Below, one piece after another: positions 33,201-36,200 of a stretch of DNA of 64,000 bases. The DNA is from Cristatella mucedo. Its lineage: Eukaryota; Bryozoa; Phylactolaemata; Cristatellidae. Under the pieces are notes generated by a model that saw nothing but the letters and a program-made list of their open reading frames with translations, had not been told where the DNA came from and did not search any database. The DNA lies in assembly GCA_009760855.2 (NCBI GenBank), contig WPIO01000001.1, forward strand, positions 14,539,501-14,603,500, given 5' to 3'. Position numbers and translations under genes: made by a program. Numbering within the stretch: the stretch's first letter is position 1; each line of letters starts with the position of its first letter.

Positions 33201-36200
33201 AGGTTGCCCACTAGAGTACAGAAGATGCAGTATGCTCTTTTTCATTGTGCCACGGCTGTTGTGAAAGTGATCTATCCACTGCTGCTTTAGAACCTGAGCT
33301 GTTTCACAGCTAACAGCTGATTCGCTTTGCTCTTGGCATCAGAATTTGTTGTGCGGGACTTTTTGCACGTATAATAAGCCATTTTGTGTGTAGCTTTGCA
33401 CTCAAAAAAGTGTAGGAAACATTTATTTTAGTGGTGCACCTTAATTTTCTCCTCATAGTATTGCCCCAGCTGCTGGCTATAAATGTGTTCGGGTAATAAG
33501 AGGGTTTTCTACAATGCCATGCATGCTAAATTAGTGCCTGGCATGTTAAAATAGTTTGGCAGCCCAAAAGAAACATGCTACTGGTGTGTATGCGTTTAGT
33601 GTGACGTCCCCTTCCCACGATTTCTTGTGACCTCCATGTCTGGCCAGGCATAGAGAGGCCACCAGCTTCTGCGTTATCACTTCTGCTGTAGCACCCTCTA
33701 AAGCAGCAGTTCTCAACCTGTGGGTCACGACCCCTTTGGGTTCGAACGACTCTTTCACGGGGGTTGCCTAAAACCATCGGGAAAACACGCATTTCCACAT
33801 TTTGCATACAATAATTTTATAGTTGTGGGTTGCCACCACATGAGGAACTGCATTGAAGGGTCGTGGCATTAGGGAGGTTGAGAACCACTGCCCTAAAGCC
33901 TGGGTTTTACTGAAAAGGTCGGCTACTGGTGTAGGCCGGATATCATACCTCAGCTGCTGTCAATATCGCTCCATAGTCGTTTTGTGTGCTTCAAATCAGA
34001 ATGAGCTACTGCATCAGCACCAAACAAGGGTTCGTCAGAAAAGTACTTCATTAAGTTCTTGTTTGTCAAGAAAGTTGGATTTCAAAGCTCAAATACTCTG
34101 CTTGGGGTCGTTACATTTGACAGTAAGATAGTGACCCTAAGCACATTACCAGGCCAGTGATATACTTTGTGACCCGACAATACTACCTGACTCCCCTAAC
34201 ACCGTATTTAAAGTACCTAGAATGAGATTTGGTTCTCATGGGGTGCTATACAAATGTTTTCTTATTATAGGCATCTTCATCTTACTGTCCTTTGGCATAT
34301 TTAATGTAATGTAATGTATCTCCGTCTGTAACTCCACAAAGTCATAAAGACAATGTGGGTGTGACGCAGGAGAGTTTTGTATAGCAGGAGAGTTTTGTAT
34401 AGCAGGAGAGTTTTGTATAGCGCGCACACAGCCTAAGCGGCTTTCGGTACGCATTCGGTAGCCAACAGACTTCGTCTCAGGCAACAAAGAGAAAGTGGGA
34501 AGCATAGCAGCGTCAGGAGAGCAGTTGAGGTAGTGAGTAGCATGGAAGTAGCAGCTCAGGACCGCTGAAAAGGATGTGCCATAGTCGGCAGTAGGAGAGT
34601 AGTTTGCTCAACCGGCAACCATCCTAGCTCTTTCAGCAAAGGAGACACGTGCCCAAACCTCTGGGACTTGAAGACTAGCCTTGCAACCATATTCATAGTC
34701 AGCTGCAGTGGCCTTTGCTTTGGCTCCAGCTTTCTTTGGCAGCCCAGCCAAAAGGGAATTACAATAATCAAGCCGAGACAGAACTAAAGAGCTAGTTAAA
34801 TGTTTTGCAGGCAACTGTGGGAGACAGTTCCTAATGTTGGATATGGATCGGATGTGATGGCTAGCTGTAGAGGCAGTCTTCTGAATGAAGCTTATGAAAT
34901 AGAGGCAGCTGTCGAACACGACACCTAAATTACGAGCACGTGGTGAAGGTCGCACAATAGCATCGCCTATTAGAACAGCAAAGCCTTTTAATCCAGCCAC
35001 AGGCTTAGGGTGTCCTATGAGCAGCAGTTTGGTTTTATCATCATTTAATTTCAGGAAGTTTCCCGACATCCGGGATCGAATGTCGGCAAGGCAAGCATTC
35101 AGTTTCTCAGTTGCTGCAGCAGATTCCGACGGTTTGAATGACAAATACAACTGAGTATCGTCAGCATAAAACTGATATCTTATTCCATGGGCCTTAATCA
35201 CTTTACCCAGAGGTTGTGTATAAATGGAAAATGACCTGGCATGGTTTGTGCAATGCTAGATCTGTTGCTAGGTTGGAAGAAAATACTTCAGATTGAAGAG
35301 AAAACTGGCTTCTGTATGCCTGCACTTACTGTAAAAAAGAAGCCGTCGCCCAGTTGTTAGGCAGTCTCTTATATTCTGCCTACTAAATGTCTGCTCGCTA
35401 AAAACCATGGGGTTACTTATCCACGATCAGGTGGTCCAGGAGAAGCTAGATACATTTCTGCTTACCGAAACTTGGATGACGCCGTGTTCCAGTAGCTGTA
35501 TTTCTGAGACCACTCCACCCGGGTTCTCATTCTATCAGTCCATGCGTTCTGACAAGGTTGGTGGCACGGTTGCAATTGTTGTTCGCGAATCGTTTGGCTA
35601 TAAAATGTGCAGTTTCTCGCATGGGTCATCGTTTGAATCGGTTGCCATCAGGTCTTCATCAAAGTCTATGCCTCTTACTGTTGTGATATACAGGCGTCCC
35701 TCAGGCTGTCTACACTTGTTTATAGAGGAGTTTTCAGAGTTCCTCGCTAAAATATTTGTGTGACAGGCCGTTACTGATTGTAGGAGACTTCAATATTCAC
35801 GTTGACAACCCTAGCATCAGCCAGGTCTACTCATTTCTTGACTTTCTGGGGAATTTTGGTTGGTCCAATACGTTAATCATACCACCCTCGTCGCTGGCCA
35901 TATTCTAGATCTCATGATCACTAAGGATGTCCTCCCCACTGACCTTGTGGTGTGCCCACTGATCCTCTCAGATCATTGTTCGGTTTCGTTTACTGTTCCT
36001 GCTTTCTTGTACGTACAGGGTAATGTCGAACTGTTAAGCGACATAACTTACAAAGCATTGACATAGACAGGTTTTTCAAATCTGTTTGTGATGCAGGTCT
36101 ACTTGATCTGCATTCAGACTCGACCGGCAGCCTCGATTATCTCACCCTACTTTCAGCTACATAACATTGCTAAAATTCGGGCTTGTTTAGATAAGGATAC

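What the first reader, a model, noticed from the sequence alone, without database searches (positions are those of the whole stretch)
33696..33898. SPIN-like hAT element in an invertebrate TUFM intron
The sequence shows 16-bp inverted ends, 8-bp flanking duplications (7 of 8 identical) and an interior that closely follows my memory of the SPIN non-autonomous elements. That family is known from several tetrapods and a few invertebrates with a very patchy distribution attributed to horizontal transfer. A copy here would make this lineage one of the invertebrate carriers, and its similarity to the consensus suggests a fairly recent arrival.
Basis: partly seen in the sequence, partly recalled or inferred. 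Interest (0 to 1): 0.8.

Follow-up and report, generated by a model that had tools for sequence, protein, structure and literature searches.

The report
SPIN-like jumping gene in TUFM intron
A 187-base, non-coding "hitch-hiker" DNA transposon, very like the SPIN family known to jump between distant animals, sits in what is probably an intron of an invertebrate gene; it looks like one more copy of an already documented kind of element, not a new kind of thing.

Summary
Window 33704-33890 (187 bp) has inverted ends matching at 14 of 16 positions and 8-bp flanking duplications matching at 7 of 8. Outside a microsatellite it is the only such structure found, and 40 simulated windows gave none. It aligns end to end with SPIN/URR1-type strings that I recalled from memory (score 170; shuffle maximum 28; without the TIRs 114 against 31), while a recalled unrelated hAT, MER20, matches only at the ends. 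No curated reference was available, so SPIN membership is likely but not formally tested. The gene is mitochondrial EF-Tu; the element most likely lies in intron 1, exon 1 being inferred. The host looks invertebrate, species unknown. "Fairly recent arrival" is not supported: one copy, about 10% different from the recalled string over its arms. SPIN or SPIN-like elements are already in print for the snail Biomphalaria glabrata (about 1,000 copies) and the bug Rhodnius. Copy number in the host could not be measured: the genome search did not complete six times.

The parts
33696..33703 (.). Left target-site duplication CTCTAAAG
   Evidence: 7 of 8 identical to the right copy.
33704..33719 (+). 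Left terminal inverted repeat CAGCAGTTCTCAACCT
   Evidence: 14 of 16 complementary to the right end.
33704..33890 (+). 187-bp non-autonomous SPIN-like hAT element (MITE); too short to code for a transposase
   Evidence: TIR+TSD scans; alignment to recalled SPIN/URR1 strings.
33875..33890 (+). Right terminal inverted repeat AGGTTGAGAACCACTG
33891..33898 (.). Right target-site duplication CCCTAAAG
30238..30327 (+). Candidate TUFM exon 1 coding part (30 aa), ending in phase 0; inferred
   Evidence: Reading frame and phase agreement with exon 2; no transcript evidence.
39697..39853 (+). TUFM exon 2, coding for [11 protein letters not shown]...[24 protein letters not shown]; starts after TTTTTGTTGCAG; 3' edge read by eye before GTAGGT, approximate
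41743..48479 (+). Further TUFM (mitochondrial EF-Tu) exons, given as the span of the ORF pieces
   Evidence: Six ORF pieces match Pfam EF-Tu domains, two of them below Pfam's curated cut-off; further exon at about 44391; hand-spliced protein best matches mitochondrial EF-Tu, E 4.7e-169.

Best explanation
33704-33890 is a single copy of a non-autonomous, SPIN-like hAT element (probably Buster group) that inserted in an intron, most likely intron 1, of the host's TUFM gene. Shown: the TIR/TSD anatomy and its rarity. Inferred: a hAT transposase made elsewhere in the genome by an autonomous SPIN-like partner bound the ends, moved the element by cut-and-paste into an 8-bp target, and gap repair produced the duplications. 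The copy has since collected changes in one or both TIRs, one TSD and the interior, and is probably inert. The host lineage probably got the family by horizontal transfer, as proposed for SPIN elsewhere, but this window cannot show that.
For: TIR 14/16, TSD 7/8; only such pair outside a (TA)n array in the window, none in 40 simulated windows. TA at positions 4-5 in both duplications, as reported for TcBuster, with SPIN placed in the Buster family (PMC3499496 passages). Scores 170 and 165 to two recalled SPIN/URR1-type strings (300 shuffles each: at most 28 and 23); interior without TIRs 114 and 109 (500 shuffles: at most 31 and 27; 409 other 155-bp tiles of the window: at most 25 and 23); recalled MER20 interior 15, within its shuffles. 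TUFM identity of the gene.
Against: The recalled strings have a longer middle (42 and 37 gap positions in the alignments), so the centre is not shared. The left duplication also fits the nTnnnnAn-type preference reported for Hermes (T at 2, A at 7; PMC8721813), the right one does not, so the Buster assignment from one insertion is weak. No second copy was found in the window and the host genome search did not complete, so repeat status in the host is unshown.
Confidence: 0.86

Rival explanations
1. It is a member of a SPIN-related but distinct hAT family (a resident invertebrate Charlie/Buster family, or a URR1-type element) that shares ends and subterminal sequence with SPIN by common descent and not by recent transfer.
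For: 10% difference from the recalled string over the arms and no shared central part; I could not tell SPIN from URR1 by recall, and the URR1-type string scores slightly higher (170 against 165); the B. glabrata paper says 'significant identity' with SPIN and that DNA elements there were not recent invaders (PMC5440852 passages).
Against: 90% identity over 160 non-coding arm positions is high for vertical descent from a deep animal ancestor, if the recalled strings are right.
Confidence: 0.12
2. The inverted ends and flanking repeats are a chance arrangement and the similarity to SPIN is a memory artefact.
For: References are recalled; a TIR-like match alone is not rare (12 of 100 shuffles had as many).
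Against: 0 hits for the TIR+TSD combination in 40 simulated windows and only this hit outside a (TA)n array in the real one.
Confidence: 0.02

Closest known systems
SPIN (SPACE INVADERS) non-autonomous elements, reported in mammals, squamates and Rhodnius prolixus
   Same: hAT-type ends and duplications, short non-coding body, subterminal sequence as I recall it; presence in an invertebrate known through Rhodnius (PMC11614815, passages).
   Different: Middle part shorter and different; 16 of 160 compared arm positions differ from the recalled string, plus 2 gap positions; host here unknown.
SPIN-like hAT of the snail Biomphalaria glabrata (about 1,000 copies)
   Same: An invertebrate hAT with significant identity to SPIN (PMC5440852, passages).
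   Different: Its sequence is not in the passages read, so identity to the present copy could not be measured.
TcBuster (Buster group of hAT)
   Same: 8-bp nnnTAnnn target duplications (PMC3499496, passages).
   Different: TcBuster is an autonomous element; the present copy is too short to code for a transposase. Sequences were not compared.

Membership tests
hAT superfamily | 8-bp target-site duplications | tested here: met
   CTCTAAAG/CCCTAAAG, 7 of 8; 8 bp as part of the hAT definition in PMC11008031.
hAT superfamily | Terminal inverted repeats of about 15 bp | tested here: met
   14 of 16; 15 bp in PMC11008031.
hAT superfamily | Mobilised by a hAT transposase | not testable with these tools
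   The 187-bp copy is non-autonomous; the host genome search did not complete.
hAT, Buster group | Target duplications of type nnnTAnnn | tested here: inconclusive
   Both copies have TA at positions 4-5 (pattern from PMC3499496), but one insertion is a weak sample and the left copy also fits the T2/A7 preference reported for Hermes (PMC8721813).
SPIN | High identity to the curated SPIN consensus beyond the TIRs | tested here: inconclusive
   Strong match to recalled strings only; no curated sequence at hand and none found in main texts.
SPIN | Several similar copies and an autonomous SPIN partner in the host | not testable with these tools
   Genome search unanswered six times; no second copy found in the 64-kb window.
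MER20-type hAT (control) | Similarity beyond the TIRs to recalled MER20 | tested here: not met
   Interior score 15 against shuffle maximum 31; only the terminal 15-17 bp match. The MER20 string is recalled too.

The most novel reading that the evidence does not exclude
The host is an invertebrate lineage not yet known to carry SPIN, and its SPIN family descends from a separate horizontal transfer, with its own short-centred subfamily amplified there.
Probability: 0.3. Interest if true: 0.45.

Novelty: new member of a known kind. Interest (0 to 1): 0.25.

Why it matters
SPIN is a well-known case of a transposon moving between phyla; each further invertebrate carrier narrows down the possible vectors and timing. 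By itself one degraded copy in one gene adds a data point, not a principle, and SPIN or SPIN-like elements are already in print for a snail and an insect.

Tried and rejected
Relatives of the element as viral cargo or contamination: four pattern scans of viral contigs gave 0 exact matches each; blastn against phages gave none up to E 1 and against plasmids two chance-level Shinella pieces, E 0.6. One genome-contig scan with an 18-base internal pattern gave 24 loci in bacteria and archaea; blastn of the element against the 24 showed as best match in each the pattern stretch itself, 18-26 bases, with other matches only at E 0.3 or worse, so I dropped all 24 as chance. A 16-bp TIR-like match at 8635-8650 was looked at and has no partner end in the TIR+TSD scans. 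Rfam search of the window at gathering thresholds: 0 matches; ARAGORN tRNA scan: 0. Dating the insertion was rejected as unsupported: one copy, no host consensus, no host mutation rate. Naming the host was not possible: no collection of animal genomes was at hand.

Literature: listings; only the top 25 of 77, 20 of 146 and 12 of 60 papers were listed. Passages only were read in PMC5440852, PMC11614815, PMC8721813, PMC11008031, PMC3499496 and PMC5857283; in PMC5791352, PMC3513734 and PMC5331948 the term SPIN occurs in the reference list alone. The original SPIN papers (PMC2579371, PMC3004126, PMC3350315) are not held, so I know them only through citing papers and recall; a SPIN record from the pond snail Lymnaea is recalled only and did not turn up in the passages read.

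Full report
Observation. Window 33704-33890 is a 187-bp stretch beginning CAGCAGTTCTCAACCT and ending AGGTTGAGAACCACTG; the ends are inverted repeats at 14 of 16 positions, and the flanks CTCTAAAG and CCCTAAAG agree at 7 of 8. A TIR-like stretch alone is not rare (4 matches with up to 3 mismatches, 1.84 expected, 12 of 100 shuffles reaching 4). The combination is: I scanned the window for every pair of 16-bp inverted ends (at least 14 matches) bounded by 8-bp direct repeats (at least 7 matches), element length 80-1000 bp. Apart from register shifts within the (TA)n array at 58543-58661 this was the only hit, and 40 windows simulated from the window's dinucleotide frequencies gave none. A looser scan (12 of 14), with five microsatellite regions left out, again gave only this pair.

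What it is. Eight-base duplications and ends of about 15 bp define hAT elements (PMC11008031, passages). Both octamers have TA at positions 4-5, the nnnTAnnn pattern reported for TcBuster, and SPIN is placed in the same Buster family (PMC3499496, passages). This is a weak test: it is one insertion, and the left octamer also has T at 2 and A at 7, the preference reported for Hermes (PMC8721813, passages), although the right one does not. At 187 bp the element cannot code for a transposase, so it is non-autonomous.

SPIN or not. No curated consensus was on hand, and the main-text search for six SPIN-type stretches found no paper. I therefore compared the element with strings recalled from memory, as a lead and not as a test. 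Two recalled SPIN/URR1-type strings align end to end (scores 170 and 165; 300 dinucleotide shuffles reach at most 28 and 23). With the 16-bp ends removed, the interiors still score 114 and 109 (500 shuffles: at most 31 and 27; 409 other 155-bp tiles of the window: at most 25 and 23). A recalled MER20 string, a different hAT, matches only at the ends (interior 15, shuffle maximum 31). Over the two arms, 76 of 83 and 68 of 77 compared positions are identical (144 of 160, 90%; 2 gap positions aside); of the 16 substitutions 13 are transitions and 4 look like CpG decay. The middle is shorter than in the recalled strings (42 and 37 gap positions). I could not separate SPIN from URR1 by recall.

Surroundings. 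Six ORF pieces downstream match EF-Tu domains 1-3, two of them below Pfam's cut-off, and a hand-spliced protein, with approximate exon edges, matches mitochondrial EF-Tu best (chain 7a5g_Z, E 4.7e-169; 245 of 389 aligned residues identical, 63%). Exon 2 begins at 39697 after TTTTTGTTGCAG, in phase 0. The exon-1 candidate 30238-30327 ends in phase 0 before GTGTGC, a donor that is not strong, and would give a 9,369-bp intron holding the element. The intron reading is likely; exon 1 is inferred. Beyond lie a Sir2-family gene and a NIF3 gene. LINE reverse-transcriptase fragments lie downstream of the element in the same putative intron, at 34608-35255 (below Pfam's cut-off) and 37652-38107. CpG observed/expected is 0.66 over the window; together with the 63% TUFM identity this speaks for an invertebrate (that vertebrates are CpG-poorer and their TUFMs closer to one another is recalled). 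The species is not known.

Mechanism. Shown: ends, duplications, rarity. Inferred: an autonomous SPIN-like hAT elsewhere in the genome supplied the transposase, which cut the element out and pasted it into an 8-bp target, duplicated on repair; the copy has since decayed. That the family came by horizontal transfer is inferred from the literature on SPIN and is not shown by this window.

Novelty. SPIN-type elements in invertebrates are in print: about 1,000 copies of a hAT with significant identity to SPIN in Biomphalaria glabrata, where DNA elements are said not to be recent invaders (PMC5440852, passages), and SPIN in Rhodnius prolixus (PMC11614815, passages). If the host is a carrier of that kind, this is already known; otherwise it is a further carrier. 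Copy number and age could not be measured, because the own-genome search did not complete six times.

Noticed in passing
window 48887-49195 and 51276-51941 (-), 52248-53015 (+): Two pieces of a Sir2-family (sirtuin) gene on the minus strand lie tail to tail with TUFM, followed by a NIF3 (DUF34) gene piece on the plus strand.
   Followed up: partly
window 34608-35255 (-), 37652-38107 (+), 26563-26976 (-), 11261-11728 (-): Reverse-transcriptase (RVT_1) fragments of LINE-type elements, the first below Pfam's cut-off; the first two lie downstream of the hAT element in the same putative TUFM intron (4 of 10 pieces given matched RVT_1, 1 Sir2, 5 nothing).
   Followed up: partly
window 11965-12068, 39071-39191, 58543-58661, 60991-61129: Long dinucleotide microsatellites, GT/TG and TA, 104-139 bp each.
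   Followed up: no
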